From contig CALVEH010000004.1 of NCBI GenBank assembly GCA_944326545.1, forward strand, positions 62,001 to 126,000: a stretch of 64,000 nucleotides of DNA, read 5' to 3'. The stretch comes from Candidatus Gastranaerophilales bacterium. Lineage in GTDB: Bacteria; Cyanobacteriota; Vampirovibrionia; Gastranaerophilales; Gastranaerophilaceae. The notes beneath the pieces are model-generated. The model was not told the DNA's origin, ran no database searches, and worked only from the letters and a program-made list of their open reading frames with translations. Below are positions 2,570 through 49,192 of this stretch, piece after piece (positions within the stretch are counted from its first letter, which is position 1; each line of letters begins with the position of its first letter). Both the position numbers and the translations under genes were made by a program.

Positions 2570-3337
2570 TTATTGTTTGAAAAACTTTTCTTTTAGTTTG
2601 TTTTTTATTCTTTTTATATTAAAAAATTCTTTATTTGGAGCAATAGCACAACCAGGGTCTATAAGATATATTTTACCGTTTTTTGCTCTACCAAATTGAG
2701 ATGTTTTTATTGTTGCTCCATCATTTTCTTCATCATAATGCACAAGGTAATCTTTCATATGATAACCTTTACTTTTTATATGTTTTACAAGTTCTCTAAG
2801 TTCTTCTTGTGACAAGTTATCTTGTGATATTTTTTCTTCAAAATAATAATAACAGTTTTTTATTTTGCCTTTTTGTTTTATTGGTAAATCAAAATCATCC
2901 GGCGTTCTGTTTTGTGGAAAATGGTTTACGTCTGTGATTTTTAATATATTTCCGTCTTCTGTTTCAAACACTAAAGCAAATGCTCCTATTCCAATAAGAG
3001 ATTTGACTTTTGTGTTTCCTATTTTTGATGATTCTAGTTCTATAGCAATTTGTTCTAAATCTTCTTGAGAGTGCAAGTGTTTTAAAAGTTCATCTGATAT
3101 AAAAGTATCTTTTGTTAATGAAAGCTCATAAAAAATATCTTTAATTTTTGTTGGCCTTTTAAATATTATTGATTTAAGACAATTGTTTTTTGTTGTTTTT
3201 ACAAAAGCAATATTTTTTTTGTCACCTTCAAAACGCTCGCTAAAAGAATCTTTTAAAGAGTCGTAATCTATGTCTTGTTTAAAAGATGGTTTAATTATTT
3301 TATTGTTATATGCAAAATTTACTGATTTTATATTCAT
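2570..3337 (-). CDS. Kinase-fold-like protein with the M-x-I-K-S N-terminal signature
   Basis: Function unknown. The chosen start gives MNIKSVNFA, matching the N-terminal signature of other proteins in this window, with PSFKQ soon after (residues 17-21). An in-frame ATG 18 bases upstream is possible. The middle resembles a protein-kinase N-lobe: a glycine-rich loop IGIGAFALVFE (about 115-125) followed by LKIT with a possible ATP-binding Lys. Later YLIDPGC (about 224-230) sits where kinases have DFG. No clear HRD catalytic loop is visible, so activity is uncertain. It is oriented divergently from rdgB and reads towards uppS. Confidence 0.7.
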   Translation of the reverse strand: MNIKSVNFAYNNKIIKPSFKQDIDYDSLKDSFSERFEGDKKNIAFVKTTKNNCLKSIIFKRPTKIKDIFYELSLTKDTFISDELLKHLHSQEDLEQIAIELESSKIGNTKVKSLIGIGAFALVFETEDGNILKITDVNHFPQNRTPDDFDLPIKQKGKIKNCYYYFEEKISQDNLSQEELRELVKHIKSKGYHMKDYLVHYDEENDGATIKTSQFGRAKNGKIYLIDPGCAIAPNKEFFNIKRIKNKLKEKFFKQ

Positions 3338-3409
3338 ATTCTGTGTAAAAAACATAAAGAATAAAATTTGCTTATTAATGATAAAATAAATAAAAATTGG
3401 GAGAATATT

Positions 3410-4119: not shown

Positions 4120-4413
4120 TTATGCGTTGTATAATATATTTTGAGTTGAATCATAGCTTTCGATAGCTTTTTTCAATTGTTGAGCGTGTCTTGTGTTTTC
4201 ATCAGAGAATAAAACATCTTTGAGGAAGTTTATTTTGCTCACAAAATTGTTTTTGTTTTTCTTATCGTTAGAAGATTCAACAAATGCTTCTAAAATAGCC
4301 GGAGAAACAACGCTATCTGTTTGAGATTGTTTGAAAACAGGTCTAGTAGCGTATAGTTTGTGGTTATTATTTATATTTGAATAGCTATTTGTATTTATGC
4401 TATTAATTTTCAT
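4120..4413 (-). CDS. Small protein with the M-x-I-N-S...F-K-Q N-terminal signature
   Basis: Unknown 97-residue protein. It begins MKINSINTN and has VFKQS near residue 30, the same pattern as the gene at 27569 and the kinase-like protein at 2570. The rest is hydrophilic, rich in Asn, Lys and Ser, with no hydrophobic segment, so it is probably soluble or exported by a route that uses the N-terminus. AAGGAC lies about 8 bases before the ATG. A terminator follows the gene, so it is likely monocistronic. Confidence 0.75.
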   Translation of the reverse strand: MKINSINTNSYSNINNNHKLYATRPVFKQSQTDSVVSPAILEAFVESSNDKKNKNNFVSKINFLKDVLFSDENTRHAQQLKKAIESYDSTQNILYNA

Positions 4414-14304: not shown

Positions 14305-15819
14305 TTATTTGTTTTCACCCATATATTCGTATATCCTAAACCCTTCAAATTTTACGATTGCAGGGTGGCTTTCATATATAAGTTTGTAATTTTTTAGTTC
14401 AGTAACGTTTAATCTGTCTGCATCAAAAAATGGTACGAGTGCGTATATTTTTTTGTTTTTAAAATTTGGCAGGTATTCTAAAGCGTATTTTGCGTATTCG
14501 TTCCAACCGTTTTTATCCAGTATGTAGAAAATCTTTTTGTCCCAAACAACGTATTTAATATTGTATTCGTGTTGGGCAGACCAAATTTCGTTTTTTCCTT
14601 TAAGGTAATAAACAACTCCAATAGCGTGAGGGTCGTTATCAGTTACAATAATAGAATTATTTTTATCTATATTTTGGGTTATCCATTGAGCAGTCTCTTT
14701 TGCTGCAGAATAGTTGTATTTGATATCAAATATAGAATATTTAAGGCCGTTCATTAGTGTAAAAATAAAGAACAAACCGATTATAAAATTTGTTGTTATT
14801 TTTAATTTTTCGGATAAATTTTCTTGGTTTAAAAGTAGCCACAAGCAGAACAATAAAATGATATGTCCGCAAAATATTCTTGTAACAAATATCCAGTGGT
14901 TATAACCAAGAATATAAATAATTATTTGAAATAAAATGCTTAAAAAAGCTATAGAAAAAAGTTTTTTATTCTTTATAAAAAGAATTACAAACAAAGATAA
15001 ATATAATAAAACAGAAAGCATTATTAACGGTATATTTATCATTGGGAACATAATTTTCCCTATATCCGGCCATTGATTGTCAACAGAGTTTATGAAAAAT
15101 TGGCTTAATACCTTAGTAATGCTTATTCCTAAATCACTTGTATCAATCTTTATAACTACATTGCTTGATGTTGTTCCGTGCAGCTGTAAAACTACTGCAA
15201 GCAAACCAAAAGCCATAATTATAAAGGCTGTAGAAAATATCTTTTTTTGTTTTGGTTCTAATGTTTTCCATTTAATAAAAACGTTTTTGTATAAAAAGTC
15301 CAAAGTTAAAAGTCCGCAAAAAGCAAGCATAATAATGTGCGTATTTGCTAACATAAATATTAAAGATGCATACCAAAACGGATGTTTGTCTGATTTTGGG
15401 TAAAGGTATGCAAGACCAAAAACTAATAACGGTAAAATTGAATAACTTCTTGCTATTACAGGGAAAAAGTATAAAAATCCCGCACTTGTTAAAATGGCAA
15501 ATTTAGCAAATTTGTTAAACGGTGACTTTTGCAAAAATAAAAATACTGTAGCTACCATACTGAGCCAGCAAAAGATTTGCATAAACATAATTGATATATT
15601 CAACTTTGCAAACGGCATCATCAGTAAATAAAAGAATGACGGATGACCTTCATTAACAAGGTGTTTGAATAATTGAAAAATGTTCATATTTTTGGCTAAC
15701 AGCCAAACTTGTGCTTCGTCTGCCCATGTTTCGTGGTGTATAACCAGTATCAGTGTAAAAATTGCATATAAAAATGTGATTAAGATGTTTTTTATAAGAT
15801 TTTTTTTTGTTTCGCTCAT
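14305..15819 (-). CDS. GT-C-type membrane glycosyltransferase, subfamily A (copy 2)
   Basis: Predicted polytopic glycosyltransferase (504 residues, roughly ten hydrophobic segments) of the GT-C fold, which uses polyprenyl-phosphate-linked sugars outside the inner membrane. The first periplasmic loop has the acidic pair expected in these enzymes: HHETWADEAQ (Asp34, Glu35), then NEGHP (56-60). A soluble C-terminal part starts around YNYSAAKETA. It is closely similar in plan to the gene at 18625 (both FKHLVNEGHP), hence subfamily A. It is last in a six-gene minus-strand array that opens opposite gtrA-gtrB. Sugar and acceptor unknown. Confidence 0.75.
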   Translation of the reverse strand: MSETKKNLIKNILITFLYAIFTLILVIHHETWADEAQVWLLAKNMNIFQLFKHLVNEGHPSFFYLLMMPFAKLNISIMFMQIFCWLSMVATVFLFLQKSPFNKFAKFAILTSAGFLYFFPVIARSYSILPLLVFGLAYLYPKSDKHPFWYASLIFMLANTHIIMLAFCGLLTLDFLYKNVFIKWKTLEPKQKKIFSTAFIIMAFGLLAVVLQLHGTTSSNVVIKIDTSDLGISITKVLSQFFINSVDNQWPDIGKIMFPMINIPLIMLSVLLYLSLFVILFIKNKKLFSIAFLSILFQIIIYILGYNHWIFVTRIFCGHIILLFCLWLLLNQENLSEKLKITTNFIIGLFFIFTLMNGLKYSIFDIKYNYSAAKETAQWITQNIDKNNSIIVTDNDPHAIGVVYYLKGKNEIWSAQHEYNIKYVVWDKKIFYILDKNGWNEYAKYALEYLPNFKNKKIYALVPFFDADRLNVTELKNYKLIYESHPAIVKFEGFRIYEYMGENK

Positions 15820-15836
15820 TTTGTTTTATCCGTAAT

Positions 15837-17201
15837 TTAGTAGTATCTGACAAAAGTCATTATAAAAGTTTGGAAAAGTAAAAATAAAGATAATAAAACC
15901 AAACTTATCGGTAGTACTTTATTTTTTATTGAAAATTTTGTTGAACTTAAAAGAAGTATTAAAGGTAATATCAAAGGAGTCAGATATCTGCCTTGAACTC
16001 CTATAATATAGGGTTTTGTTTGATATATCAGATAAACAGATGTCATTATTATAAAGTGAATAAGTATAATAACTGCAAAAAGCATTATTCTATCTGCAAT
16101 TTTTATGTTGCACTCAGTTTCATTTTCTGATTTGTAAAATACTGATGCAATCAGCCCTATCCATGCAAAATGAATGTACTGTGCAGGTATCATTGCGAGT
16201 GTTACACCTATGCTTGAAATCATGTTCTGGTATAAAAATCCTTTTAAAAAGTTTGTTGAAGCCAAAACATTTTTTATATAAGCAAATGGTGCAAAAATAA
16301 TTTCTTTAATCAAATCGAATTTATTTACAAATTGATGTTCAAGCCCATAGTTGCTTGTTATTGGTGATTGCATAATTGTCAAAAGAAACAAGCAAATAAT
16401 TAATATATTGATTATTGTTGTTATTGAAAAAATTTTTATGTAATTTTTTGTACTTTCAAATTTGTCTTTTGGTATCAAAAAATATAATAAAATTAGCGGA
16501 AAATAAGCGAATTTTAAAATGCTTACAAGAGTAATTAAACTACCCCACACAAAAAATCCATTATGATTTATTTGTTTAGAATCACCATAAGCAAGTTTTA
16601 ATGTGTATGTAATGTATAACATTATAAAACCTAAAGTTATACCGTCAGTGCTTACTGATGCTGCTTGATAGACGTTTATTGGTAATAATGCAAAGAAAAA
16701 TATCAACCATTTTTTGCAGGGAGCAATTTTTATTGCAGAATAAGTTAAAGCCAGATAAACCAACAAAGAACAAAACCTCAAAATATACATCATACAAAGA
16801 GGTTTAATATTCAAAAGTTTTAAAATCCACAAAACAATAAAAGACGGAAAATACGATAAAGGAGTATAACTTGTCGGTGTAAAGTTTAAAAATTGAGTGT
16901 TGTTTTTATCAAGTTTTATTTTAGTAGCGTTTAAAGTTGCATTAAAAGGAATTTTTTCATTCGACATTCTATATGCGTTATAAAATGCGTGTATGTTAGA
17001 AAAACTTTTTGGTAAAGTAAGCCCTGTTTGTCCTTCTTTAATTTCGTATTTTAAAGTATGTTGTGTGTATCCCCACATTTTATAAAAATGTTCAAGTTCG
17101 TCAGGAGATTGAAAAGGCGGGTTTATGAACAAAAAAACAATTCCCCAAAACAAACATAGTATTAAAAATATGTTTTCTGTTTTTAATAAGGCTTTTTTCA
17201 T
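15837..17201 (-). CDS. DUF2142-like membrane protein (copy 2)
   Basis: Polytopic membrane protein (454 residues, roughly ten hydrophobic segments) of DUF2142 type, related to GT-C glycosyltransferases. The first loop after the N-terminal helix has INPPFQSPDELEH (27-39) with the acidic PDE motif; GVQGRYLTPL lies near the C-terminus. The same landmarks occur in the gene at 21532, so the two are paralogues. It lies 17 bases downstream of an upstream array gene's transcription unit and before the subfamily A gene. Probably transfers a lipid-linked sugar; specificity unknown. Confidence 0.72.
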   Translation of the reverse strand: MKKALLKTENIFLILCLFWGIVFLFINPPFQSPDELEHFYKMWGYTQHTLKYEIKEGQTGLTLPKSFSNIHAFYNAYRMSNEKIPFNATLNATKIKLDKNNTQFLNFTPTSYTPLSYFPSFIVLWILKLLNIKPLCMMYILRFCSLLVYLALTYSAIKIAPCKKWLIFFFALLPINVYQAASVSTDGITLGFIMLYITYTLKLAYGDSKQINHNGFFVWGSLITLVSILKFAYFPLILLYFLIPKDKFESTKNYIKIFSITTIINILIICLFLLTIMQSPITSNYGLEHQFVNKFDLIKEIIFAPFAYIKNVLASTNFLKGFLYQNMISSIGVTLAMIPAQYIHFAWIGLIASVFYKSENETECNIKIADRIMLFAVIILIHFIIMTSVYLIYQTKPYIIGVQGRYLTPLILPLILLLSSTKFSIKNKVLPISLVLLSLFLLFQTFIMTFVRYY

Positions 17202-17214
17202 TCCTCGTTCCCCG

Positions 17215-18609
17215 TTAATTTGTTTTTTTCACTACGTGATAAATAGAAAACTTTTCTTGATTATTAAAAACTTTATCAGATGAGGCATAAATAGGTATTA
17301 TGTCATCGTAAAAAGAACCTGCGCTCATAATAACATAAATGTCTTTTCGGTGTTTTAAATATTCTGCCAACGGTACAGGTGCAAAACTCGGGCTTATGTT
17401 TTTGTCCCATTTTGAGAATGTATAGTAGTCATTATATCCTTGGTAGAAAAATTTCCATTTTCCTTTGTTTTGTGGCAGATATGCGCTTATTGCGACAGTT
17501 GTTAAAGGATAATTTGATACAATAAAAGCGTCTTCCGGTATATGTTTTTTTATAAATTTTGCAACTCTTTCTCCGTCAGAAAAACTTTTTTGCATATCTT
17601 GTTTTATAAGTTCAAATCCGCAAGGCAATGTAGAGAAAAATGCCAACATAATCAAAAGATTTGTTGTTATTTTTAATTTGTTATCAAAGTCTTTGAACAT
17701 AACCCAAAAACAAAACATAATTACAAAAAACAATGTGTATATTCTTTGAGGAAGTTGTCCCCACACATATACATAAACCGCAAATTGAAAAAGAGTACTA
17801 AATGCATAAACAAACAACATTTGTCTGTTTTTAAAAGCCGTTATTATTGCCGCACAAGCCGTAAATATATAAAATACTGCGGTATAGGACCAATTAACAC
17901 TACCGTAAAGGTTGAATATAGATCTGTCTAATGCATGGATTATATTTTGCGGGAACGGTAACGGTTGTGCAATTTTGACAATGATATTTTCGTTTTGGCT
18001 TCCCCACAAGTACAATGTGATACAAGCAAAAGAAACAAACATCAATGCTGCTGCGGTTATTGATTTTTTATCTCTGTTATTCCACAAGAATATAACAGCC
18101 AATGCGGTGCAAAATCCAAGCATTATTACATGGGTGTTTGCAAGCATTATGACTAACAAAGCGTATATAAAAGGATGCTCTTTTTGCTTTTGATAAAAAA
18201 CAGCAAGCAAAAACATAAATAAAGGAATAAAACAGTAGCTTCTTGCCGTCGCTGCGTACCAGTACAAAAATCCTGAACTTGAGACCACAGCCAACCTGCT
18301 AAAAAAGTTAAAAGGTGATTTAAAAAATAAAACACCAACAGAAACTACAACAACCAGCCAATTTAAAATTTGCATTGACATTATCGGCAAACCTGATTTA
18401 GCAAAAGGTAATAATACATAATACCAAAATAGAGGGTGTCCTTCTGTTCTTACGTGTTTTATTATTCCCAAAAGGTCTAAATCTCTTACAACAAGCCAAG
18501 CTTGTGCTTCATCAGCCCAAACTTCGTGATGTAAAAGTATTATCAAAGTTGTTATTGCGAATAAAAAAATGCAAATTGAATTAATTATTAAAGATTTTTT
18601 ATTTTCCAT
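17215..18609 (-). CDS. GT-C-type membrane glycosyltransferase, subfamily B (copy 2)
   Basis: Polytopic protein (464 residues) with the same plan as its neighbours: an N-terminal helix, HHEVWADEAQ (Asp33, Glu34), RTEGHP (54-59), about ten hydrophobic segments and a soluble C-terminal end. It is closest to the gene at 20114: both share LVVRDL, the EGHP motif and SMQI in the same order. Inferred to use a polyprenyl-phosphate sugar donor made by the adjacent GtrB-like enzyme. 15 bases separate it from the upstream gene at 18625. Confidence 0.75.
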   Translation of the reverse strand: MENKKSLIINSICIFLFAITTLIILLHHEVWADEAQAWLVVRDLDLLGIIKHVRTEGHPLFWYYVLLPFAKSGLPIMSMQILNWLVVVVSVGVLFFKSPFNFFSRLAVVSSSGFLYWYAATARSYCFIPLFMFLLAVFYQKQKEHPFIYALLVIMLANTHVIMLGFCTALAVIFLWNNRDKKSITAAALMFVSFACITLYLWGSQNENIIVKIAQPLPFPQNIIHALDRSIFNLYGSVNWSYTAVFYIFTACAAIITAFKNRQMLFVYAFSTLFQFAVYVYVWGQLPQRIYTLFFVIMFCFWVMFKDFDNKLKITTNLLIMLAFFSTLPCGFELIKQDMQKSFSDGERVAKFIKKHIPEDAFIVSNYPLTTVAISAYLPQNKGKWKFFYQGYNDYYTFSKWDKNISPSFAPVPLAEYLKHRKDIYVIMSAGSFYDDIIPIYASSDKVFNNQEKFSIYHVVKKTN

Positions 18610-18624
18610 ACTGTTTTATTCAAA

Positions 18625-20127
18625 CTATCCCTTAAATTTGTAAACTTTAAAACTTTCTCCGAGTGACAATGCCTTAGAAGATGAAAAAATGAGTTCATAT
18701 TTTGATGGGATTTTTTCTTCAAAATGATGAAGATTCATAAAATCCGATGACAAAATATAAACATTTTTCAGGTTATATTTTTGAACATTATATTCTAAAA
18801 TTTTTGTAAAATAATAATCCTCATATACATCGTTATCTTCTTTAACCCATTTCATATATTTTATAAAAGTTTTTCTTCTTATAGACCAAAAATTTCTTGA
18901 TGGCAGATAATAATAAATGCCCAAAGAACAGCCGTCTTCCGTCGGTATTAAAATTGCGTTTTCAGGTATGTTTTTTTGTATAAATTCAGCTGTTTCTTTG
19001 GCAGAAGAATAATTCCCCACAAAATCTTTATAAGCGTAATTTATTCCGTTAAAACAGCTCATAGCAAAAAATATTGCGATTAAACTATTAACAACTTTTG
19101 TAGAAAACAGTTTTGTTTTTTTGTTTTCTTTTTTGCTTTTATCTAATGCTATCCACCAACAGAATATTGTTATTAAAAATGCACAAAAAATTCTTGAAGG
19201 GTACATTAAAGCCGAATATGCAAAAACGTAAATAAAAAGTTGAAACATGACGCTAAAACTGTTTAAAGCAAAAATCTTTTTATCATAACCCCATAAACCA
19301 ATACACAAGTTTATATACAAAATTAAAAATACAAAAATATACAAAAAGTATGCGATGTTAGCAAAAGGAAGTTTTTGTATTTCAAAAAGTATAGAGTTAT
19401 AAAAATCAACTGCATTAACAAAAAATTGTATTGGAACAACTATTGCAGAACGAAAAATATCTTGTGTGGAAAAATTTATCATACTATTGGAGTTTTCTGT
19501 TCCCCAAAGCTGTAAAACAACTGCAGTTAAACCCATAAAAATTATTGTTGCAGGTAAAAAGACTTTTTGTTTTTTTTCTTTAATATTTTCTATGACAAAA
19601 AACAATCCCAATAAAAAAGCAAAACAAAACATAATAACATGCGTATTTGCAATTAAAACAAGCAATATTGAATAAAAAATCGGGTGTTTATTTTTGTCTT
19701 GATATAATGTGGCTGTTAAAAAAAGTAATAATGGCAATAATGAATAACTTCTTGCTATAACAGGGAAAAAGTACAAAAATCCTGCGCTTAAAGTTATTGC
19801 TAATTTTGTGGTTTTTTGAAACGGCGCAAATTGCCATAACAAAAAGACACTAAAACAGGTGCTTAACCAGCACAGAATTTGCATAAAAAATATCGGTAAC
19901 TTCAATTTTGCAAATGGCATTATAAGCAGGTAAAAAAGCGACGGGTGCCCTTCATTAACAAGGTGTTTGAATAAATCAATAAATCCCAAATTTTGAACAA
20001 TAAGCCAAGCTTGTGCTTCGTCTGCCCAGATTTCGTGGCGTATTACAAAAAAAATAGTAATAACCGCAAACAATCCTGTGTATATTAAATTTAGTATTAA
20101 TGATTTTTTATCGCTAATTTTTAACAT
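18625..20127 (-). CDS. GT-C-type membrane glycosyltransferase, subfamily A (copy 1)
   Basis: Polytopic protein (500 residues) with HEIWADEAQ (Asp36, Glu37), HLVNEGHP (55-62) and about ten hydrophobic segments, matching the gene at 14305. A shared C-terminal landmark is NYSSAKETAEFI, after which the chain is soluble. Its start overlaps the 3' end of the preceding gene by 14 bases, so translation is probably coupled. Specificity unknown. Confidence 0.75.
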   Translation of the reverse strand: MLKISDKKSLILNLIYTGLFAVITIFFVIRHEIWADEAQAWLIVQNLGFIDLFKHLVNEGHPSLFYLLIMPFAKLKLPIFFMQILCWLSTCFSVFLLWQFAPFQKTTKLAITLSAGFLYFFPVIARSYSLLPLLLFLTATLYQDKNKHPIFYSILLVLIANTHVIMFCFAFLLGLFFVIENIKEKKQKVFLPATIIFMGLTAVVLQLWGTENSNSMINFSTQDIFRSAIVVPIQFFVNAVDFYNSILFEIQKLPFANIAYFLYIFVFLILYINLCIGLWGYDKKIFALNSFSVMFQLFIYVFAYSALMYPSRIFCAFLITIFCWWIALDKSKKENKKTKLFSTKVVNSLIAIFFAMSCFNGINYAYKDFVGNYSSAKETAEFIQKNIPENAILIPTEDGCSLGIYYYLPSRNFWSIRRKTFIKYMKWVKEDNDVYEDYYFTKILEYNVQKYNLKNVYILSSDFMNLHHFEEKIPSKYELIFSSSKALSLGESFKVYKFKG

Positions 20128-21532
20128 TGTTTTGTTTACCGTCTAAGTTATCCAAAATATAAAATCTCTCTGTCATAATTAATGTAGTATCTTTTGATTT
20201 GTACAAAACTTTTTCTTCCGGTACGGCAAGAGAACTGAAAAGGTAGTATATTTTTTTCCCTTTAAATTTTTGCAGATTTTTTTCTTGTACATCTATAGGG
20301 ATGTAATCATTTGCTTTGCTGTCATATCCGTATGTATAAAAAGTATCGGTAATCGGATAGTAGAATTTATAACCTTTTATATAAGCAGCAATACTGCTTG
20401 TAAAAATTGGGCGATTTGTGATTATTATATCGTTTTGGTTTATGTGTTTTTTGATAAAGTTTGCAGTATTTTTGCTGCCTGAATAATCATATTTTATATC
20501 GTTGTTTCTTAGTTGGAATCCAAGATTAATACTGAGACCGAAAAATAAAATCAAAATTAAATTGTAAATAACTTTTTTTGTTTTGCTTAGATTGTCTTGC
20601 AAAAATATTATCCAAAAACAAAATAACAAAACACATATTCCTGCCCATGTTTTTTCAGGAGCTGACATCCAAATGTAGTTATATATAAAAAACTGATAAG
20701 CAATATTTACTAAAAAAGCACAAAACAGTTTTTTGTTTTCAATAAATATCGCAATCCCTGATGCTAAAAGTAATATAGAAAGAAATATTCCTTTTATATT
20801 TCCCATAACCCCAAACAGGTTAATCATATATGTGATATAAGTCTTAGTAAAAAATTTGTCTGCCAATACTATGTATTGAGAAACACTTTCGTTTTTATGA
20901 GGACAAGTGAAGATGTACAAACATAAAAATAAAATTGGTAAAAATATAATTAAAAATGGAGCTATATAATTTTTTTTATTAATCTTATTTTTAAAAATGT
21001 TGTCATAAAAAAATAAAATTCCCATTACCGTACAAAAAGCACACATCAATACATGAGTTTGTGACAACAACGCCAAACTGATTGCGTACAAATATGGTCT
21101 TTGTTTTTGTGTCGGGTAAAACAATGCAGCCAAAAATATAAACAAAGGCACTAATGAATAGCTTCTTGAAAGTACGGGAAGCCAATATAAAAAACCTGCG
21201 CTAAAAATTACGCTCAATTTTGTGATTATGTTAAATGGAGATTTCCATAAAAAAACACCAACGGCTGTTGTCATAAAAAGCCAGCTTATTATTTGCATTG
21301 AAGTGATTGACATTCCCAACTTTGCAAAAGGAAATACCATCAAATACCACATTAAAGGGTGTCCTTCTATTCTTACGTGGTCTATTATTCCCCAAAAATT
21401 TAAATCTCTTACGACAAGCCAAACTTGTGCTTCGTCTCTCCAGACTTCATGATTTAATACACAAATAACGGTTAATACTGCATATAAAATTAAACATATT
21501 ACATTAACAATAAGTGTTTTTTTATTTTCCAT
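20114..21532 (-). CDS. GT-C-type membrane glycosyltransferase, subfamily B (copy 1)
   Basis: Polytopic protein (472 residues) with NHEVWRDEAQ (Asp33, Glu34), RIEGHP and SMQI, matching the gene at 17215. C-terminal YDYSGSKNTANFI corresponds to the similar segment in the other array members. The ATG touches the stop codon of the DUF2142-like gene upstream, so the genes are cotranscribed. Predicted to act on the outer face of the inner membrane with a lipid-linked sugar. Confidence 0.75.
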   Translation of the reverse strand: MENKKTLIVNVICLILYAVLTVICVLNHEVWRDEAQVWLVVRDLNFWGIIDHVRIEGHPLMWYLMVFPFAKLGMSITSMQIISWLFMTTAVGVFLWKSPFNIITKLSVIFSAGFLYWLPVLSRSYSLVPLFIFLAALFYPTQKQRPYLYAISLALLSQTHVLMCAFCTVMGILFFYDNIFKNKINKKNYIAPFLIIFLPILFLCLYIFTCPHKNESVSQYIVLADKFFTKTYITYMINLFGVMGNIKGIFLSILLLASGIAIFIENKKLFCAFLVNIAYQFFIYNYIWMSAPEKTWAGICVLLFCFWIIFLQDNLSKTKKVIYNLILILFFGLSINLGFQLRNNDIKYDYSGSKNTANFIKKHINQNDIIITNRPIFTSSIAAYIKGYKFYYPITDTFYTYGYDSKANDYIPIDVQEKNLQKFKGKKIYYLFSSLAVPEEKVLYKSKDTTLIMTERFYILDNLDGKQNNVKN

Positions 21533-22899
21533 TAAACGTACCCGACAAGTATTGTGATAAGTGTTTCAAAAAGCAAGAATTGTGATATAAGAAAACACAA
21601 AACAGGCAAAACCATACTTTTAGTTCGGAATTTTTTCGTGCAAAAAATCATTAGTCCAAACAACAACAATGGTGTTAAGTATCTGCCTTGTATACCTACT
21701 ATGTAAGTTTTGCTTTTATAAATTAAATATACGGATGTAACTATAATCAAATATGAAATAATTATTGCACTTAGTATTAAAAATTTTTGTTTTAAGTTGA
21801 TACTAAAAGTTTTTTCTTTAGCCGTTTTATAAAACATTGAAACTATCAACGCAAAATATGCAATATTAACTGCGAACATAGGTATCATCTTAAAAAATAC
21901 ACTTACGCTTGAGATGATATTTCTGTAGCAAAAGCCTCTCAATATGTATGTTGATTGAATGACTTTTTTTAAGTAGCCGACAGGTGATAATATGATTTGT
22001 TTTATCAAATCAGTTTTGTCGGAAATTAAAAAAGCCTTTGTATGTTCATTCATTATTGGGCTGCTCATTACAAAAGAAAGAAACAAAACTATTATAAAAA
22101 TTGAACATAAAGCTATAATTGACGGATATTTAAAATATTCTTTTATACATTCAAATTTTGATTTTGGCAAAATGAAATATGTAACAATAAGAGGGAAATA
22201 TGCGTATTTTAAAATACAAATGTAAATAAATAACAGTCCCCAAATTGCAATTTGTTTTGTGTTAATAATTTTTACTCTGTCGTCAAAAGCAAGATTTAAT
22301 GTATATGCCAAAAACAAAATTATTAAACCGAAAGTTAGCCCGTCAACACTAACAGAGGCGGCTTGGTATATGTTAATAGGTAAAACCGAAAATAAAAAGA
22401 AAGTCCATTTATATCCGGGTGTGATTCTTATTGCTGCATAACACAAAGCCAAATAAACTACCAGAGAACAAAATCTCATAATGTACAGCATAAACAAAGG
22501 TTTTATGTTTAACAATTTTAAAACCCACAATAAAATACAAGATGGAAAATACGATAAAGGTGTATAACTTGATGGGTTAAAGTTTAAAAATTGTTGGTTT
22601 GTTTTGTCTAAATTAAGTTTAGATGCTTGTAATGTTCCTTCAAAAGGAATTTTTGTATCTATCCTTCTAAAATAATCATAAAAGTTATACATATCGACAA
22701 AACTTTTAGGCAGAGTTTGACCGCTTATGCCTTCTTTTATCTGATATCTTAAAGAGCCTTGTGTGTAACCCCACATTTTAAAAAGGTGTTCCGGTTCATC
22801 AGGTGTCTGAAAAGGCGGGTTAATAAATAAAAAGATTATTCCCCATAACAGACAAATTATTAAAAATAAGTTTTCTATTTTAAACAAAGTTTTTTCCAT
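21532..22899 (-). CDS. DUF2142-like membrane protein (copy 1)
   Basis: First gene of the six-gene array (455 residues, roughly ten hydrophobic segments). INPPFQTPDEPEH (27-39) and GIQGRYLTPL near the C-terminus match the paralogue at 15837. The N-terminal helices LFLIICLLWG are also shared. The start codon is only 26 bases from the gtrA start on the other strand, and the promoter -10 box is part of a shared palindrome. The leader is short, about 9 bases, with a weak TAGAG site. Confidence 0.72.
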   Translation of the reverse strand: MEKTLFKIENLFLIICLLWGIIFLFINPPFQTPDEPEHLFKMWGYTQGSLRYQIKEGISGQTLPKSFVDMYNFYDYFRRIDTKIPFEGTLQASKLNLDKTNQQFLNFNPSSYTPLSYFPSCILLWVLKLLNIKPLFMLYIMRFCSLVVYLALCYAAIRITPGYKWTFFLFSVLPINIYQAASVSVDGLTFGLIILFLAYTLNLAFDDRVKIINTKQIAIWGLLFIYICILKYAYFPLIVTYFILPKSKFECIKEYFKYPSIIALCSIFIIVLFLSFVMSSPIMNEHTKAFLISDKTDLIKQIILSPVGYLKKVIQSTYILRGFCYRNIISSVSVFFKMIPMFAVNIAYFALIVSMFYKTAKEKTFSINLKQKFLILSAIIISYLIIVTSVYLIYKSKTYIVGIQGRYLTPLLLFGLMIFCTKKFRTKSMVLPVLCFLISQFLLFETLITILVGYV

Positions 22900-27568: not shown

Positions 27569-27997
27569 ATGACAATAAACAGTATCAGCGCTCAACCATT
27601 AAAATCAGATGTAAGCTTTAAACAAAACCTTTCAAAAGAAGCTAAAGAATCACAAAATAAAAAACATTCCGTTGCTAAAACTGTTGCTTGGACAGCTGCA
27701 GGAGTAGCCGGAGTAGCTGCATTGACTATTGCAGGTATTAAGCTTGCTAAATCAGGCAAATTAGATGGAATTACTCAAAAACTTAAAAATGTTGTAAAAA
27801 CATCTCCAAAAGAATATACCTACTATGGTACAGCAACAAGATCATTTGAATCTAATAAAGCTATGGCAGATGAAATAGTTGCTAATTTTAAAGCTATGAA
27901 AGATCGTGTGAGAGGTCACAATCTTAAACAGTGGATTTATAACAATAAGATTGATTGGTCTCAGGCACCTCAACCAAGAGCTAATGTTGTAAAATAG
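27569..27997 (+). CDS. Small membrane protein with N-terminal M-x-I-N-S...F-K-Q signature
   Basis: Unknown 142-residue protein. It starts MTINSISAQ with SFKQ at about 16-19, like the genes at 2570 and 4120. A single hydrophobic helix (about 38-60, Ala/Gly-rich, TAAGVAGVAALTIAG) is followed by a basic soluble part. AGAGG lies 7 bases before the ATG. It separates accB from accC and is preceded by repeat copy A, as the similar 47678 gene is preceded by copy B. The role may concern the envelope; no function recognised. Confidence 0.8.
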   Translation: MTINSISAQPLKSDVSFKQNLSKEAKESQNKKHSVAKTVAWTAAGVAGVAALTIAGIKLAKSGKLDGITQKLKNVVKTSPKEYTYYGTATRSFESNKAMADEIVANFKAMKDRVRGHNLKQWIYNNKIDWSQAPQPRANVVK

Positions 27998-29473: not shown

Positions 29474-29510
29474 AAAAAGCCCTCTAAATAAAGAGGGCTT
29501 TTATTTTTTG
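29474..29510. terminator. Bidirectional terminator after accC
   Basis: A 10-bp stem (AAAGCCCTCT 29476-29485 with AGAGGGCTTT 29492-29501) with T-rich sequence following on the + strand and T residues on the minus strand. It overlaps the stop codon of the convergent GNAT gene. Confidence 0.85.
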
Positions 29511-30232
29511 ATTTTATTATAAATTCTTTTATACCAAGGCTCTGTTTGGTTTGTTTCATCAAGTCTTTTATCCATAAATGTTATGTAGTCTGGATAATCT
29601 CCCCTAAATTTGTTGAGATAGTCAATAATAGCTTTTTCTTCTTTATTAGAATAATCCATTATCCTGTATCCGTTTTTTAATTGAAAAGGCACAGCCATAT
29701 TATCTGAAGCAAGAAAAACATCCGTATAAATATCTTTCGAACAGTTTATGGCTTTTTCCATAAGGATTTGTCCTACGTGGTTTTTTCTGTATTCTTTTTT
29801 TACTGCTACAGAGTCAACGTAACAAGTTTTATCGTCTTGTATTCCAGAATAATCTTTGAATGTTTGGGTTATAACTGCACCACAAAGCTCTCCTATGGCA
29901 TTTCTTGCTTCTAATGCAGTTAGGTTTCCGTCATCTTCCTCAAACATTTGTTTGTAATATTTTTTTATTCTGTCGAGTAAATCAAGGTATTTTTCAAAAT
30001 TTTCAGGATTTTTATATTGAGTTAAAGATGGATCTTTGGTGTTGTAGATAAAATTATCGGTAAAAAATTTAGTTAGTTCATAAATTTTTGCTTCATATTG
30101 AGCATCTTTGTTTGTGAACTCTTTTACATAAAGGGTTCCTTTATTTGTTTTTATTTGAAATTTTTCTACAGGATGATTTTTAGAACCGAAACTTGTACGG
30201 TAATCTCTGCAAGATAATCTTGATACAACCAT
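29501..30232 (-). CDS. GNAT-like acetyltransferase with a TSFGS N-terminus
   Basis: Predicted acyltransferase (243 residues). The middle has the GNAT acetyl-CoA fold signature: YVDSVAVKKEYRKNHVGQ (about 138-155), with the basic/Gly pyrophosphate loop. The N-terminus MVVSRLSCRDYRTSFGSKN resembles the signature of other proteins in this window but ends in F-G instead of F-K. A Phe-Arg-rich C-terminus follows. Substrate unknown. Convergent with accC, sharing a terminator. Confidence 0.75.
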   Translation of the reverse strand: MVVSRLSCRDYRTSFGSKNHPVEKFQIKTNKGTLYVKEFTNKDAQYEAKIYELTKFFTDNFIYNTKDPSLTQYKNPENFEKYLDLLDRIKKYYKQMFEEDDGNLTALEARNAIGELCGAVITQTFKDYSGIQDDKTCYVDSVAVKKEYRKNHVGQILMEKAINCSKDIYTDVFLASDNMAVPFQLKNGYRIMDYSNKEEKAIIDYLNKFRGDYPDYITFMDKRLDETNQTEPWYKRIYNKIKK

Positions 30233-40852: not shown

Positions 40853-41386
40853 CTATATTCTTACGTTGTAAAGCTCGTTGTATGCGTTAACGAGTTTGTT
40901 TCTCATTTGTAATGCCATTTGCATTGTCAAATTGGCTTTTTGAGACGCAAGCATAACTTCGTGAACGCTTATATCTCCGCCGGAAGCAAATGTTTCTGCA
41001 GCTTCATAAGCTGCATTTTGAGATTTGTTTACATCGTTTAAGCTGTTAGAAAAAGCGTTACCGATGTCATTTGCCATGTTTTCTACAGCAGAATTTGATC
41101 TTCTTTGATTTTGTGAGTTCAATGAGTTTTCTTGAACTTGTGCTACGTTGTCCAGTCTGTCGATTGGCGAAATGCCCATATTCTCAAGACCCACATTCAT
41201 TTGAATACCTGTGTTTATAATAGGTCCTTGCGGAATATTGTTCATATCCTGCATTTTGCCGTTTAATATGTTGTCAAAGTTTGTCATTCCGTTTTTGTCT
41301 GACGAAATGTTGAATGACTCCATATTCTGGTTAAAAATTTTGTTATAGTTTTGTATTGAATTGTTTGCTATTTGATTAAATTGCAA
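40853..41386 (-). CDS. fliE: Flagellar hook-basal body protein FliE (extended)
   Basis: Joins the MS ring to the proximal rod. The C-terminal part has the FliE signature: SVHEVMLASQKANLTMQMALQMRNKLVNAY near residues 140-170. FliE is usually around 100 residues; here 177, with an Asn/Gln/Met-rich N-terminal extension. It lies 11 bases downstream of flgC, in the same operon. Confidence 0.9.
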   Translation of the reverse strand: MQFNQIANNSIQNYNKIFNQNMESFNISSDKNGMTNFDNILNGKMQDMNNIPQGPIINTGIQMNVGLENMGISPIDRLDNVAQVQENSLNSQNQRRSNSAVENMANDIGNAFSNSLNDVNKSQNAAYEAAETFASGGDISVHEVMLASQKANLTMQMALQMRNKLVNAYNELYNVRI

Positions 41387-41397
41387 TTTTTATACTC

Positions 41398-41904
41398 CTA
41401 GATTTTTAATGCGGCAGAAATCATACCTTTTGTTGTTTCTGCTGTCGTTACGTTTGCTTCATAAGCACGTGAAGCTGATACCATGTTTACCATTTCTTCA
41501 ACAACGTTAATGTTAGGTAAAGTCACAAATCCGTCTGCGTCAGCTTCAGGATTTGACGGGTCATAAACTGTTTTGTATGGATCGTTAGAAGGTGTAATTT
41601 CCGCAACTTCTACTCCTTGAGAGATTGTTCTGTCGTCGTAAGAAATACCGCCTTTTAACATTACGGTATTGTTTGTAGGGCTGAAGAAAGCCTCGTGTTG
41701 GCCGTCAGGAAAAGCCGGAGCATGAGAACCTAGTCTGTCTGCGTAGATGGCTTTAAAGCTTACGTTTTTTTTGATATAAACCCCAGGTGTGCCGTCAGGG
41801 TTTCTTGTTGTGTTAACGTTGGCGATGTTACTTGCAATGTTATCCATCATTGTTCTTTGAGCATACATGCCGCTGCCTGATATGTCGAATGCGCTAAAAC
41901 TCAT
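41398..41904 (-). CDS. flgC: Flagellar proximal rod protein FlgC
   Basis: Rod component (168 residues). The N-terminal AFDISGSGMYAQRTMMDNIASNIANVNT is the rod/hook motif, and the C-terminal PNINVVEEMVNMVSASRAYEANVT is typical. It lies between flgB (3 bases) and fliE (11 bases). Confidence 0.94.
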   Translation of the reverse strand: MSFSAFDISGSGMYAQRTMMDNIASNIANVNTTRNPDGTPGVYIKKNVSFKAIYADRLGSHAPAFPDGQHEAFFSPTNNTVMLKGGISYDDRTISQGVEVAEITPSNDPYKTVYDPSNPEADADGFVTLPNINVVEEMVNMVSASRAYEANVTTAETTKGMISAALKI

Positions 41905-41907
41905 CTA

Positions 41908-42420
41908 TTATGAACCTCCGCTTTTAATTATGTCTTGAAGATTTGTCATAAAGCGTCCCTCTAACGTTGCTAAAACGTTGTATTGAGAACCTGCCTTAGC
42001 CATGTCCATCATTTCTTCTTCGACGTTAACATTGTTCCCGTTGCCGTAGTCAATCCATCTTGTATCTCTGATTACCTCAGGAGCGTAGTTGTTTGTATCT
42101 GCTTGTGTTTGTTGAATATACATAAATTGCTCTTGAGGAAGTCTTTGTGCAATATTTTGCTGCATTGGGTTTGTTGACATTGTATAGCCCGGTTTATATT
42201 CATCGTTTTTATAAGCCTGACTGTTTTGCATTCTCAAATCTCGTCTTACATCGTCTTTTGCAATGATTTCTCTTAACTGGTCTTCAAAAGCAACCTGTTT
42301 TCTTTGATAATTGGGTGTCATTGCGTTAGCAGTGTTTGAGGCAATTGCTGTTTGTCTTTTTACTAACCCGTCCATTGCAAGTTTTGATACTTCAATGGCT
42401 CTTACATTAAACAAATCCAA
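41908..42420 (-). CDS. flgB: Flagellar proximal rod protein FlgB
   Basis: Rod component (170 residues). N-terminal KRQTAIASNTANAMTPNYQRK is the rod motif; the C-terminal NNVNVEEEMMDMAKAGSQY is typical of FlgB. It follows the histidine kinase by 20 bases. GGAGAGGAGG lies before the ATG. Confidence 0.93.
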   Translation of the reverse strand: MDLFNVRAIEVSKLAMDGLVKRQTAIASNTANAMTPNYQRKQVAFEDQLREIIAKDDVRRDLRMQNSQAYKNDEYKPGYTMSTNPMQQNIAQRLPQEQFMYIQQTQADTNNYAPEVIRDTRWIDYGNGNNVNVEEEMMDMAKAGSQYNVLATLEGRFMTNLQDIIKSGGS

Positions 42421-42440: not shown

Positions 42441-43745
42441 TTATAATTTGGGTACTGTTATTTCAAAAGTAGTACCGTTTTCGTCTGAGCTTATGAGTTT
42501 TAAATCTCCGTATTGCTCTTGCATTGCTTCTTTTGAAATATACAGTCCGAGTCCGCTGCCTGTAACTTTTGATGTGTAACCTTCTTCAAAAACTTTTGAA
42601 CATTTGTCTTTTTCTATACCGCAGCCGTTATCCGTGATTAAAATCTTGAGCATATTGTCTGATGTTTCTTCGGTTTTAATTTTTATTGTTCCGTTCTCTT
42701 TTACCGCGTCTATTGCGTTATAGAAAAGATTTATCATTACGTTCAAAAGTTTGTTTTCATCGGCTAAAATATTGCCGTTGTAAGGGTTTGAAACTTCAAA
42801 TTTTACGCCTGTTTGTTGTGCTTTTGCGTTTACAAGGTTTATGGCATTTTGCAATATTTGTGCAAAATTTAGTGTTTCAAGTTTGACGCTTTGGATTGTT
42901 CTAAGCTCTGTTAATAGAACCTCGATAGCCTCTTTAGATTTTTTTATGCTTGAAATTGCGTTTGTTATTGAGTCATGGAGTTCTGCGTTAGCAACAATTT
43001 CAAGTCTTTTTTCTATTATTTTTGAATACAAATCGATGATAGAAAGGTGATTTTTTATATCGTGAGAGATTACTTTTGCTTTTGTTGATATGTAATCATA
43101 TTTTTTTGCAATATCATCGCTTTCACCTAACAAGCCCACTTCTGCTTGGGTCATAGAGGCTTCTTCAACAAACGAATCTGCAAAGTTGATGAACTTGTGC
43201 ACCGCTTGGTTTAAAAGTTCGTTGCTTCTTCTTTCAGGGGTGTATTCTTGAATGTATCTGGTTAAATCAATTTTAGAGTTTTCAGAGATTATTTGAATAA
43301 CGTTGTTTACATCTCTTGAGTTTAAAAGGTAGTACAAACAAGATGTTTCTTTGATTGTTTCTGTAGAATAATCCCACAACATGCAGGCAGAATATCTTGG
43401 AGAAAGTAATACAAGGAATTCTGTTTGTCCCCAGATGTCATCTTTTGTGAGATTTTCGCCTTTTGTAACATCGTCAAAGGAGTAAACTTCTGCGTTTGTG
43501 AACTCGAGTCTTTTTAAAACTCCGTCAAGTTCTTTTGTATCAAAGAGTCTGATTAAAACAACAGCTTTTTGAGTTTGGGCTTCTAAAAGAGGTTCTAACG
43601 CAAAGCGAAACAAACCTTTGATGGTTTGTTTGTTGACAGGTTTTGTCTGTCCTAAATATATCAAATCTTTTAAAAGATTTTTTTGTCTAAAGTTTGCTCC
43701 GCTCATTTTTCTCTCTTGAATTTCCTTTGCGCTCAGACCTGTCAT
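42441..43745 (-). CDS. Histidine kinase linked to flagellar genes
   Basis: Soluble sensor kinase (434 residues). An N-terminal region of unknown sensing domain (about 1-200) precedes the DHp helix with SHDIKNHLS (His228) and the HATPase domain with NLFYNA (Asn343), DNGCGI (372-377) and GSGLGLYI. There is no membrane segment, so the sensor is cytoplasmic. It lies between the response regulator and flgB, so it may control flagellar expression or motility. An alternative start at 43706 is possible. Confidence 0.88.
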   Translation of the reverse strand: MTGLSAKEIQERKMSGANFRQKNLLKDLIYLGQTKPVNKQTIKGLFRFALEPLLEAQTQKAVVLIRLFDTKELDGVLKRLEFTNAEVYSFDDVTKGENLTKDDIWGQTEFLVLLSPRYSACMLWDYSTETIKETSCLYYLLNSRDVNNVIQIISENSKIDLTRYIQEYTPERRSNELLNQAVHKFINFADSFVEEASMTQAEVGLLGESDDIAKKYDYISTKAKVISHDIKNHLSIIDLYSKIIEKRLEIVANAELHDSITNAISSIKKSKEAIEVLLTELRTIQSVKLETLNFAQILQNAINLVNAKAQQTGVKFEVSNPYNGNILADENKLLNVMINLFYNAIDAVKENGTIKIKTEETSDNMLKILITDNGCGIEKDKCSKVFEEGYTSKVTGSGLGLYISKEAMQEQYGDLKLISSDENGTTFEITVPKL

Positions 43746-44026: not shown

Positions 44027-44737
44027 CTATATAGCGATTTTGACTTTTCTTCTGTTCAAAAATCCGTTGTTCAATGCGTACAACACAGCTTGTGTTCTAT
44101 CATTAACCTGCAATTTTTGGAAGATATTGTTTACGTGTGTTTTTACTGTTGTTTCTGAAATAAACAGTTTTTGTGCCACACCTTTGTAAGTTATGCCTTG
44201 TGTTAACAAATCAAGAACTTCTTCTTCTCTTTGTGTAAGGTAGTTAAGAAGATTTTCTTCATCTGCTGTATTTTCTGCTTCTTCTTTGAAAGATTTTTGG
44301 AAATATTCGAAAAATCTTGAGGACAAAGTTGCAGGTAAGTAAATTTTGCCTGCTGCAACTTCGTCTATTGCATAGATGAGTTGAGCAGAGGCCATTGTTT
44401 TTAAGATATAGCCTTTTGCACCAATCTTCATAGCTCTGAAAATTAAGTCAGGATCATCATAGCCTGTCAAAGCGATAATACGCACTCCCAAATCCAGTTT
44501 TTCAATCTCTGCTATCGCAGTTAGACCGTCTTTTTCAGGCATGTTGATATCCATTAACACGATTTCGGGACGATACTTCTTAATAAGACTGATTGCAACA
44601 CTTGCGCTTGTTGCTGTTGCCACAACATCGAAATCGCTCTCAATTTCAATCAATTCCTTGATACCTGACAAATGATCGTAATTGTCATCTACTAGAATGA
44701 TTCTGGCTTTCTTCTTAAATTCAAGACCTCTTCTCAT
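44027..44737 (-). CDS. NarL/LuxR-type response regulator
   Basis: Two-component regulator (236 residues). Receiver with Asp17, Asp18 and Asp63 (LMDINMPEKDG), then a C-terminal LuxR-type helix-turn-helix: LTQREEEVLDLLTQG and ETTVKTHVNNIFQKL. The ATG is 3 bases after a GGGGGGAG site. First gene of the run leading to the histidine kinase and flagellar rod genes, which are likely its partner and targets. Confidence 0.92.
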   Translation of the reverse strand: MRRGLEFKKKARIILVDDNYDHLSGIKELIEIESDFDVVATATSASVAISLIKKYRPEIVLMDINMPEKDGLTAIAEIEKLDLGVRIIALTGYDDPDLIFRAMKIGAKGYILKTMASAQLIYAIDEVAAGKIYLPATLSSRFFEYFQKSFKEEAENTADEENLLNYLTQREEEVLDLLTQGITYKGVAQKLFISETTVKTHVNNIFQKLQVNDRTQAVLYALNNGFLNRRKVKIAI

Positions 44738-45020
44738 CTACTCCCCCCAAGATTTTATTTTTAAATTGTTATTAATCGTGTGATTGTATTATTTACACAT
44801 GTTATGTTACCTCTAAATGCAGTAGGCTCTCATCGGCTATGGGGTTGAAATAGCGGGGAAAACGCATCTTCTTAATGATTTAGACCACATGGTCTATAGA
44901 TAGGTCTTTTTGCTTACAGTGAAAAGGATTTCAGGATTATTTAAAAATAATTTATTAGTATTACTTTTCAAAGTTGAAGTAATAGATTTAAATTAGTCAT
45001 AATGTATGATAAATTATTGT
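44738..45020. other. Intergenic region between the response regulator and rnpB
   Basis: 283 bases without an ORF. AT-rich flanks enclose a more G-rich stretch (44815-44870) with CTAT/ATAG, then TAGACC/GGTCTA (44880-44896), and a possible alternative pairing of AGACC with AGGTCT followed by TTTT. It may hold a leader or small RNA; not confirmed. Confidence 0.35.
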
Positions 45021-45378: not shown

Positions 45379-45475
45379 TTATTTTTGTAAAAGCGGTTTC
45401 GCTTGTAGAAGTGGTTTGGACTTGTTTATTGCACAGGTTCATCAAGTGTTTCGAGTCAGTTGACAATATGAAATA

Positions 45476-47677: not shown

Positions 47678-49192
47678 ATGGATATTAAATCAATCAGTAC
47701 GCTAACTTTGCCTCAAACAGGTATATATTCTGCTGCACCAAAACCGCAAAACACTACGCCTGTGAGTCAGCCGATGCGAGAAAGTACAAATCACAAGACT
47801 AACAAAAATTTTAAAAAGAAACTCCCTTATATTGCAGGTGCAATAGTTTTGGCTGGTTTAGGCATATATTTTACAAGAGGCAAGTCTTCTAAAAATGTTA
47901 TTAATAACGAAAACCTTGATAAATTAGGCGAAAATGTTGTTGCTAAACTCCAAAAAAAAGAAGAAAGACTTTTGGAAGCTGTAATACCAGAAAATTCTAA
48001 TAAATTAGGTGAAAAGGTTGTTGATCAGATTAAAAAAGAAGAAACACTTGCTGAAGCATTAACACCGGGAAAGATTGAAGTACCTAAACAAAAAAATAAA
48101 GCCAGTTTAAAAGACTTGATGAAAATTGATAAAAATGATCCTGATATAGAAGACGCTGTTGAAGTTATTGAAGATGAGATCAGTGAAAATTTGCCATCAT
48201 TCCCTGAAAATATTTGTGTAGGTTTTGAAAATAATCAACCTGTTTTTGAAAAATATGCGCATGTTGTTGAAGTGGAAGTTCAACCTGTAATTAGCGCATT
48301 TGATGAAGCTAAAAAATCGATAAACCTTTTAAATGACGAAATTATCGCAAAAATAGTTGAAAACAAGAAAAAAGATGCGCAAGAGGTAAATCGTATTATC
48401 TCGGAAAATACAAAAGACGGTCACATAAACTTTAATATTATGCGTAAAGTTGCCCATGATTTTTCTACAGATGAAGCAAATAGAGGTGCAGACAGATTCC
48501 ATCAAGCTGCTGATGTTTTAGAACAATCTTATTTAAAAGAGTTTATTAAAACTGAAAATGGTGAAACAAAAGGTGTTTATAATCTTTTTGATTCTATGAA
48601 AACAGATACCGAGCTGTTCTCAATTTATACTCAAATGCCTATGGAAGAAGCTGCTAACAGGTTGAATTATCTTCGTCATAACGAGCTTTTAAACTGCAAA
48701 GCTCCTAAAGATATGACACCTGATGAATTTTTTGAAAAAAGTTTTGAAAAACTTGTAGAAAAATTTCAGTTTAAAAAATACAATGACAAATTTAAAGTTG
48801 ACGGCAATTTTATCGATGTTATGCAAAAAAACCAAAATTTGAGAAAAGAAACAAATGAGATTTTGGATTCTGTAACAGGCGAATACGGTACTGTTGATCT
48901 TGTTAAACTTAAATCAATAATAGCAAATGAATCAGATGCGCATAAAGCAGCTAATTTAATGGAAAAAGCTCTGCTCAAAAACTACAGTGGAATTTCTTCT
49001 GTTGAAGAGTTTCAAGATGCTTTTGTTTCTAACAAGACGCTTTTTGATATCTACAAAAAAATGCCTAAAGAACAAGCTACTCAAAGAATTAACGCATTCA
49101 GACGTTTCGAAATAACACCGTTTTTCAAAGACGCTGATGAGTCAAAAACTTTGGAATTCTTTAACGAAGCTGTTAAAAAATTAGACGCTTAA
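47678..49192 (+). CDS. Membrane-anchored protein with N-terminal signature and repeats
   Basis: Unknown 504-residue protein. MDIKSISTL begins like the other signature proteins; NKNFKKK replaces the F-K-Q. One hydrophobic helix (about 50-66) is followed by short repeats NLDKLGENVV and NKLGEKVV (about 85-130). The C-terminal region has two repeats centred on YTQMPMEEAANRLN and YKKMPKEQATQRIN, each in a helical segment of about 130 residues. AGGGAG lies 7 bases before the ATG. Leader holds repeat copy B. Confidence 0.78.
   Translation: MDIKSISTLTLPQTGIYSAAPKPQNTTPVSQPMRESTNHKTNKNFKKKLPYIAGAIVLAGLGIYFTRGKSSKNVINNENLDKLGENVVAKLQKKEERLLEAVIPENSNKLGEKVVDQIKKEETLAEALTPGKIEVPKQKNKASLKDLMKIDKNDPDIEDAVEVIEDEISENLPSFPENICVGFENNQPVFEKYAHVVEVEVQPVISAFDEAKKSINLLNDEIIAKIVENKKKDAQEVNRIISENTKDGHINFNIMRKVAHDFSTDEANRGADRFHQAADVLEQSYLKEFIKTENGETKGVYNLFDSMKTDTELFSIYTQMPMEEAANRLNYLRHNELLNCKAPKDMTPDEFFEKSFEKLVEKFQFKKYNDKFKVDGNFIDVMQKNQNLRKETNEILDSVTGEYGTVDLVKLKSIIANESDAHKAANLMEKALLKNYSGISSVEEFQDAFVSNKTLFDIYKKMPKEQATQRINAFRRFEITPFFKDADESKTLEFFNEAVKKLDA

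What the first reader, a model, noticed from the sequence alone, without database searches (positions are those of the whole stretch)
27569..27997. Shared N-terminal signature M-x-I-[N/K]-S-[I/V]...F-K-Q on unrelated proteins
Seen: MNIKSVNFA...SFKQ (2570 gene), MKINSINTN...VFKQ (4120), MTINSISAQ...SFKQ (27569) and MDIKSISTL...NFKK (47678) share an N-terminus, but the downstream parts differ: kinase-like, small soluble, membrane and repeat proteins. The GNAT protein at 29501 has TSFGS at a similar position. A short, portable N-terminus on different domains suggests a sorting, secretion or modification tag. It is not a classical signal peptide.
Basis: partly seen in the sequence, partly recalled or inferred. 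Interest (0 to 1): 0.7.

Follow-up and report, generated by a model that had tools for sequence, protein, structure and literature searches.

The report
Probable export tag in gut Gastranaerophilales
Many otherwise unrelated proteins of this gut bacterium (a non-photosynthetic relative of cyanobacteria) begin with the same kind of short address label, and the evidence suggests it marks them for export, most likely through a flagellum-derived secretion machine that all sampled relatives keep even when they have no flagellum.

Summary
The tag is real, but looser than described. The exact form M-x-I-[NK]-S-[IV] is nearly confined to this window. The general form is M-[polar]-[IV]-x-x-[IV]-x-[N/S], then a hypervariable linker rich in N, Q, S, T and poor in D, E, then [S/P]-[S/N]-F-x-[G/A/Q/R]. 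A model trained on part of the genome finds it in held-out Candidatus Gastranaerophilales proteins at about 4 to 7 times chance, and not in eight other families of the class. Orthologues keep both ends and scramble the linker.

None of 77 tagged proteins has a Sec-like N-terminal helix. Their bodies have half the normal cysteine content. Six genomes checked also keep an untagged, cysteine-richer GH77 enzyme beside tagged relatives, which suggests the tagged ones leave the cytosol.

Every sampled Gastranaerophilales genome has a flagellar-type export apparatus, usually without flagellin. Each also has one soluble FlhA cytoplasmic domain (60 of 60 members, 0 of 96 other class members). In 14 of 17 loci its gene sits directly upstream of a tagged gene.

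Best explanation: an N-terminal type III export signal, perhaps docked by the soluble FlhA-C. Export is well supported, the route moderately, the receptor is conjecture. No experiment was run.

The parts
27569..27625 (+). tag MTINSISAQPLKSDVSFKQ at the start of the 142-aa protein 27569-27997, which has one hydrophobic segment after the tag (from about residue 39)
   Evidence: orthologue in G082 at 34% identity starts MSVSNINAQSLRPVVNFKA beside accB
27569..27997 (+). tagged protein of the finding, between accB and accC; no Pfam or NCBIfam family
4327..4413 (-). tag MKINSINTNSYSNINNNHKLYATRPVFKQ of the 97-aa protein 4120-4413
3275..3337 (-). tag MNIKSVNFAYNNKIIKPSFKQ of the protein 2570-3355 (start ambiguous by six residues; no family found)
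47678..47818 (+). tag MDIKSIST, long linker, NFKK, of the 504-aa protein 47678-49192
30182..30232 (-). loose tag MVVSRLSCRDYRTSFGS of the GNAT protein 29501-30232
   Evidence: weaker match than the others

Best explanation
The tag is an N-terminal export signal. Proteins that start with M-[polar]-[IV]-x-x-[IV]-x-[N/S], followed by an acid-poor linker and an F-x-[G/A/Q/R] anchor, are taken out of the cytosol by a flagellar-type type III export apparatus (FlhA, FlhB, FliP, FliQ, FliR with FliF, FliH and FliI). All sampled Gastranaerophilales keep this apparatus as a filament-less set, beside or instead of the flagellum. A soluble paralogue of the FlhA cytoplasmic domain, found only in this group and encoded next to tagged genes, may dock the tagged cargo. 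Shown: the tag, its constraint, the cargo properties, the apparatus genes, and the distribution and gene linkage of the FlhA-C paralogue. Inferred: that the tag causes export, that this apparatus is the route, and that FlhA-C recognises the tag.
For: Held-out enrichment in Gastranaerophilales only. Orthologue groups keep the start pattern and, in GH77, the F-x-G anchor with unalignable linkers. 0 of 77 tagged proteins have a Sec-like N-terminal helix, against 19% of the others. Tagged bodies have 0.62% Cys against 1.35% in matched untagged cytosolic proteins, 0 of 2000 resamplings as low; Sec-type proteins are also depleted. Within the GH77 superfamily, untagged paralogues have 1.43% Cys and the two tagged groups 0.67% and 0.79%. 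The UshA-like 5'-nucleotidase, related to secreted and surface enzymes, has the tag and no signal peptide. A filament-less type III set is present in all sampled f1 genomes, and flagellin is absent from seven that were tested. Soluble FlhA-C: 60/60 against 0/96, directly upstream of a tagged gene in 14 of 17 loci. Precedent: N-terminal 20 residues of chlamydial MalQ and other glycogen enzymes act as type III signals (PMC4829429).
Against: No experiment. FlhA-family genes are wider than the tag: families f3, f4, f5, f6, f8 and f9 have them without a visible tag. Tag and soluble FlhA-C share one clade, so their co-occurrence is not independent evidence. The synteny is lost in the window's own genus. 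Tags did not appear enriched beside the main export operons. No outer-membrane exit such as a dedicated secretin was identified. Other export routes were only partly excluded.
Confidence: 0.55

Rival explanations
1. The tag is an export or surface-display signal read by another, unrecognised route, and the type III apparatus serves only its own rod parts.
For: Cargo properties fit export by any non-Sec route. Tag and FlhA-family genes do not have the same distribution across the class.
Against: No contractile sheath and no VirB4 in 12 genomes; one secretin per f1 genome, presumably that of type IV pili (inference). The soluble FlhA-C paralogue ties tagged genes to type III machinery.
Confidence: 0.2
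2. The tag is an intracellular address: it docks proteins to a cytosolic or membrane-associated structure, for example storage polysaccharide or an FlhA-C scaffold, without export.
For: Several cargo proteins act on alpha-glucans; others, such as the phosphoribosyltransferase, RelA/SpoT and GNAT proteins, would normally act on cytosolic substrates. The FlhA-C paralogue is soluble.
Against: Cysteine depletion like that of exported proteins, also within the GH77 superfamily; the 5'-nucleotidase is of an extracytoplasmic type; cargo is too diverse for one metabolic structure.
Confidence: 0.2
3. There is no functional tag: these are low-complexity N-termini of lineage-specific proteins that look alike by composition and by selection of examples.
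For: F-x-[GQA] is common near any N-terminus (202 of 667 proteins), and the strict signature is almost confined to the window. Most tagged proteins have no homologue in the outgroup sample.
Against: Composition-preserving shuffles of the same N-termini and internal-Met windows give 4 to 7 times fewer hits. Orthologues keep the ends and not the linker. The cysteine depletion lies outside the N-terminus.
Confidence: 0.05

Closest known systems
N-terminal type III secretion signals, in particular of chlamydial glycogen enzymes (PMC4829429)
   Same: uncleaved-looking polar N-terminus on diverse enzymes including a 4-alpha-glucanotransferase; no Sec signal
   Different: here a recognisable two-part motif shared by many proteins; export not demonstrated; the organism is not a known intracellular pathogen
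Flagellar type III export apparatus and its substrates (flagellin, FlgL)
   Same: FlhA, FlhB, FliE, FliF, FliH, FliI, FliO, FliP, FliQ, FliR and rod-protein homologues; flagellin and FlgL-like N-termini in class relatives start ITINTN and MSISRITTS
   Different: no flagellin in the aflagellate genomes tested; tagged proteins are not filament parts
Myxococcales-type non-flagellar T3SS without secretin (PMC3459982)
   Same: type III export components outside a flagellum, no dedicated secretin found
   Different: the Myxo systems lack FlgB, FlgC and FliE according to that paper, whereas these sets keep them
FlhA/SctV cytoplasmic domain
   Same: the soluble paralogue matches it by sequence (3mix, E 4.5e-38) and by fold search (6ch2)
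   Different: no membrane half; a short alpha/beta N-terminal domain and coiled coil instead; found in one order only at the threshold used

Membership tests
Type III secretion substrate | secretion that depends on a type III export gate | not testable with these tools
   needs an export assay
Type III secretion substrate | N-terminal signal within about the first 20-50 residues, no Sec signal peptide | tested here: met
   0 of 77 tagged proteins have a Sec-like N-terminal helix; tag within the first 50 residues
Type III secretion substrate | organism encodes a type III export gate | tested here: met
   FlhA in all 60 sampled f1 genomes, FliP in 10 of 10, FlhB in 12 of 12 f1 genomes tested
Type III secretion substrate | gene linkage to export machinery or chaperones | tested here: inconclusive
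   adjacent to the soluble FlhA-C gene in 14 of 17 loci, but not apparently enriched at the main export operons
Sec signal peptide | hydrophobic helix at the N-terminus | tested here: not met
Complete flagellum | flagellin | tested here: not met
   no flagellin in G006, G073, G050, G013, G076, G007, G001; present in the window's genus
Non-flagellar T3SS injectisome | dedicated secretin | tested here: not met
   one secretin per f1 genome, presumably of type IV pili
T6SS or extracellular contractile injection cargo | sheath protein in the genome | tested here: not met
   PF04984 in 0 of 12 f1 genomes
T4SS cargo | VirB4-type ATPase in the genome | tested here: not met
   PF03135 in 0 of 12 f1 genomes
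FlhA/SctV family (soluble paralogue) | FlhA cytoplasmic domain | tested here: met
FlhA/SctV family (soluble paralogue) | membrane half | tested here: not met
   match covers only about positions 309-653 of the family profile
FliG (for the 333-aa protein between FliF and FliH) | FliG sequence or fold | tested here: inconclusive
   no Pfam or NCBIfam match to FliG and no significant Foldseek match

The most novel reading that the evidence does not exclude
Gastranaerophilales run a filament-less flagellar apparatus as a general protein exporter for dozens of cargo proteins, addressed by a recognisable two-part N-terminal motif and delivered by a dedicated soluble FlhA-C receptor, an arrangement that the searches here did not find described for type III systems.
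Probability: 0.35. Interest if true: 0.88.

Novelty: new variant of a known kind. Interest (0 to 1): 0.72.

Why it matters
If true, a common gut lineage would have an unrecognised secretion route, and its exported proteins could be read directly from genome sequence. It would explain why Gastranaerophilales without flagellin keep flagellar genes, which the literature treats as incomplete sets left after loss (PMC4040986, PMC5877343). It would also give type III export a signal with visible sequence rules, where such signals usually show no recognisable motif (own knowledge), and a candidate receptor to test.

Tried and rejected
That stopped a check of FlhA-C-like proteins in family f5. Regex association of the two tag halves: weak and mixed, because F-x-[GQA] is common; replaced by a trained model with held-out tests. 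The trained model has false positives: RuvB (L130:12066), FliE and an ORF antisense to RNase P. Clustering of tags beside the main export operons: none apparent. Search for relatives of the 27569 protein by sequence: 4 of 97 family genomes only, so it evolves fast. FliG identity of the 333-aa operon protein: not confirmed. Flagellum-only export: rejected, since tags occur in genomes without flagellin. No paper found on a type III system or an N-terminal tag in this order, but only open-licence papers are held.

Full report
What was checked. The window is G000:C4:62001-126000 of a 2.19 Mb genome. Relatives of a protein from the same genome are recorded mostly as Candidatus Gastranaerophilales, one as Ca. 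Gastranaerophilus phascolarctosicola. The finding names five N-termini, and all five are present. Ribosome-binding sites support four of the starts; the 2570 start is ambiguous.

Is it more than chance? I read 804 kb of the genome, about 700 kb of other members of the family (called f1 here) at the time of the test, and about 950 kb of eight other families of the class, using a simple ORF caller of my own. The strict signature M.I[NK]S[IV] is almost confined to the window (1 of 667 proteins elsewhere). A looser two-part model was trained only on the window and contig C1 and then applied to the rest. At score 8 it found 16 of 438 held-out proteins of the same genome, against 2.9 expected from shuffled N-termini and 2.3 from internal-Met windows. 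In other f1 genomes it found 20 of 703 against 4.6 and 3.4, and in other families 6 of 880 against 5.0 and 1.3. The N-terminal half alone is enriched in f1 (p 2e-10 and 5e-28) and not outside; some of the f1 hits there are orthologues of each other, so the second p-value overstates the independent evidence.

Anatomy. The consensus is M-[polar]-[I/V]-x-x-[I/V]-x-[N/S], a linker of 0 to about 35 residues rich in N, Q, S, T, Y, H and poor in D, E, G, V, then [S/P]-[S/N]-F-[K/G/S/T/H]-[G/A/Q], or F-x-R-[R/K] in one enzyme group. Orthologue groups show the same behaviour. In one family of about 265 aa, starts such as MQVSPISN, MTITPISN, MQVNPINN and MKILPINN are kept in type while the next residues do not align. 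GH77 orthologues keep F-x-G-[V/I/L]-[N/D] at the end of the linker. This is what one expects of a signal with a free spacer. The 27569 protein has an orthologue at 34% identity beside accB that starts MSVSNINAQSLRPVVNFKA.

Cargo. Tagged proteins include two GH77 groups, alpha-amylase-like proteins, a UshA-like 5'-nucleotidase, an ADP-ribosylglycohydrolase, three CheR-type methyltransferases, a protein with a zeta-toxin-type domain, a RelA/SpoT-domain protein, a phosphoribosyltransferase, an HNH protein, the GNAT, and many proteins with no family. Some have a hydrophobic segment after the tag, as in 27569.

Evidence for export. None of 77 tagged proteins has a Sec-like N-terminal helix, against 19% of the others; part of this follows from how the tag is defined, since the model penalises hydrophobic linkers. 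Residues beyond position 50 hold 0.62% cysteine in tagged proteins and 1.35% in untagged cytosolic ones matched for composition and length; none of 2000 resamplings was as low. Untagged controls may include spurious ORFs, but cytosolic proteins with homologues outside the family also have 1.22%. A comparison within one enzyme superfamily removes much of this doubt. Each of six f1 genomes checked has an untagged GH77 (mean 1.43% Cys); the two tagged GH77 groups have 0.67% and 0.79% (p 4e-5 and 4e-4, though orthologues are not independent). The tagged proteins extend beyond the start of the untagged one.

Candidate machine. All 60 f1 genomes in the class sample have FlhA-family proteins. Seven f1 genomes from five genera have no flagellin but one FliP each, and the six of them tested have one FlhB each. 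Members of the window's genus have flagellin and two of each. The second set is an operon fliE-fliF-(333-aa protein)-fliH-flhA (fliE elsewhere and fliI next to it in the window's genus), a cluster with a FliM/N-like protein, FliO, P, Q, R, and a cluster with FlgF/G-like proteins, FlgB and FlgC. FliO, Q and R and the rod proteins were named from sequence and gene order by eye. The 333-aa protein could not be identified as FliG. Published work describes most Gastranaerophilales as having only a subset of flagellar genes that would not make a flagellum (PMC4040986; PMC5877343).

Candidate receptor. A soluble protein of about 490 aa contains the FlhA cytoplasmic domain without its membrane half (the structure model is of modest quality, pLDDT 68). 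It is single-copy in 60 of 60 f1 genomes and absent from 96 other class members at E 1e-70. In 14 of 17 loci, from five genera, its gene lies directly upstream of, and in the same direction as, a GH77-like gene of which most orthologues carry the tag (two lack the first half in my start calls); in 12 of these, two further families with tag-like starts follow. In the window's genus this synteny is lost. The tag and this protein have the same family-level distribution, but that is one clade, so the co-occurrence alone is weak; the gene linkage adds to it.

How it most likely works. Shown: the tag, its constraint, the cargo properties, the apparatus, the paralogue and its linkage. Inferred: that the tag drives export, that the flagellar-type gate is the route, and that the FlhA-C paralogue docks the tag. 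FlhA-C and SctV-C are docking sites for chaperones and substrates of type III export (own knowledge; entries such as 6ch2 and 7qij are such complexes). A hint comes from class relatives: flagellins of family f8 start MMGITINTNAQSL, and the only strict-pattern hit outside f1 is an FlgL-like protein, MSISRITTSYMRN. A published heterologous test shows that the N-terminal 20 residues of chlamydial MalQ and other glycogen enzymes act as type III signals (PMC4829429).

What speaks against it. Other families of the class have FlhA without a visible tag. No outer-membrane exit was identified. No tag clustering beside the main operons was apparent. There is no experiment. Intracellular targeting remains possible, as does another export route; sheath and VirB4 proteins were absent in 12 genomes, but T1SS, T7SS and T9SS were not searched for.

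Verdict. I give 0.75 to export in some form, 0.55 to export through the flagellar-type apparatus, and about 0.35 to the soluble FlhA-C as receptor. These are judgements, not calculated probabilities.

Noticed in passing
window 45023-45380 (+): RNase P RNA class A (Rfam RF00010, 242 bits). The ORF 44968-45216 (-) is antisense to it and is a false positive of the tag model.
   Followed up: yes
window 40853-42420 (-): FliE-FlgC-FlgB genes, next to a sensor kinase (42441-43745) and upstream of a response regulator (44027-44737). The genome has a separate second FliE-FlgB-FlgC set (L126).
   Followed up: partly
window 14305-22899 (-): Five large multi-pass membrane proteins of 454-504 aa in tandem that look like two paralogous groups, followed by small membrane and glycosyltransferase genes.
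   Followed up: no
G126:C103:5412-6488 and G126:C119:244-1101 (family f5): FlhA-C-only matches in proteins of about 390-560 aa outside Gastranaerophilales, below the threshold of the paralogue search; could be an independent soluble FlhA-C or fragments.
   Followed up: no
L163:3620-4606 (G005): A second paralogue of the 333-aa protein encoded between fliF and fliH.
   Followed up: no
L007:215-16675 (G000:C2): One ORF of about 5,486 aa with an N-terminal hydrophobic stretch, probably a giant surface protein.
   Followed up: no
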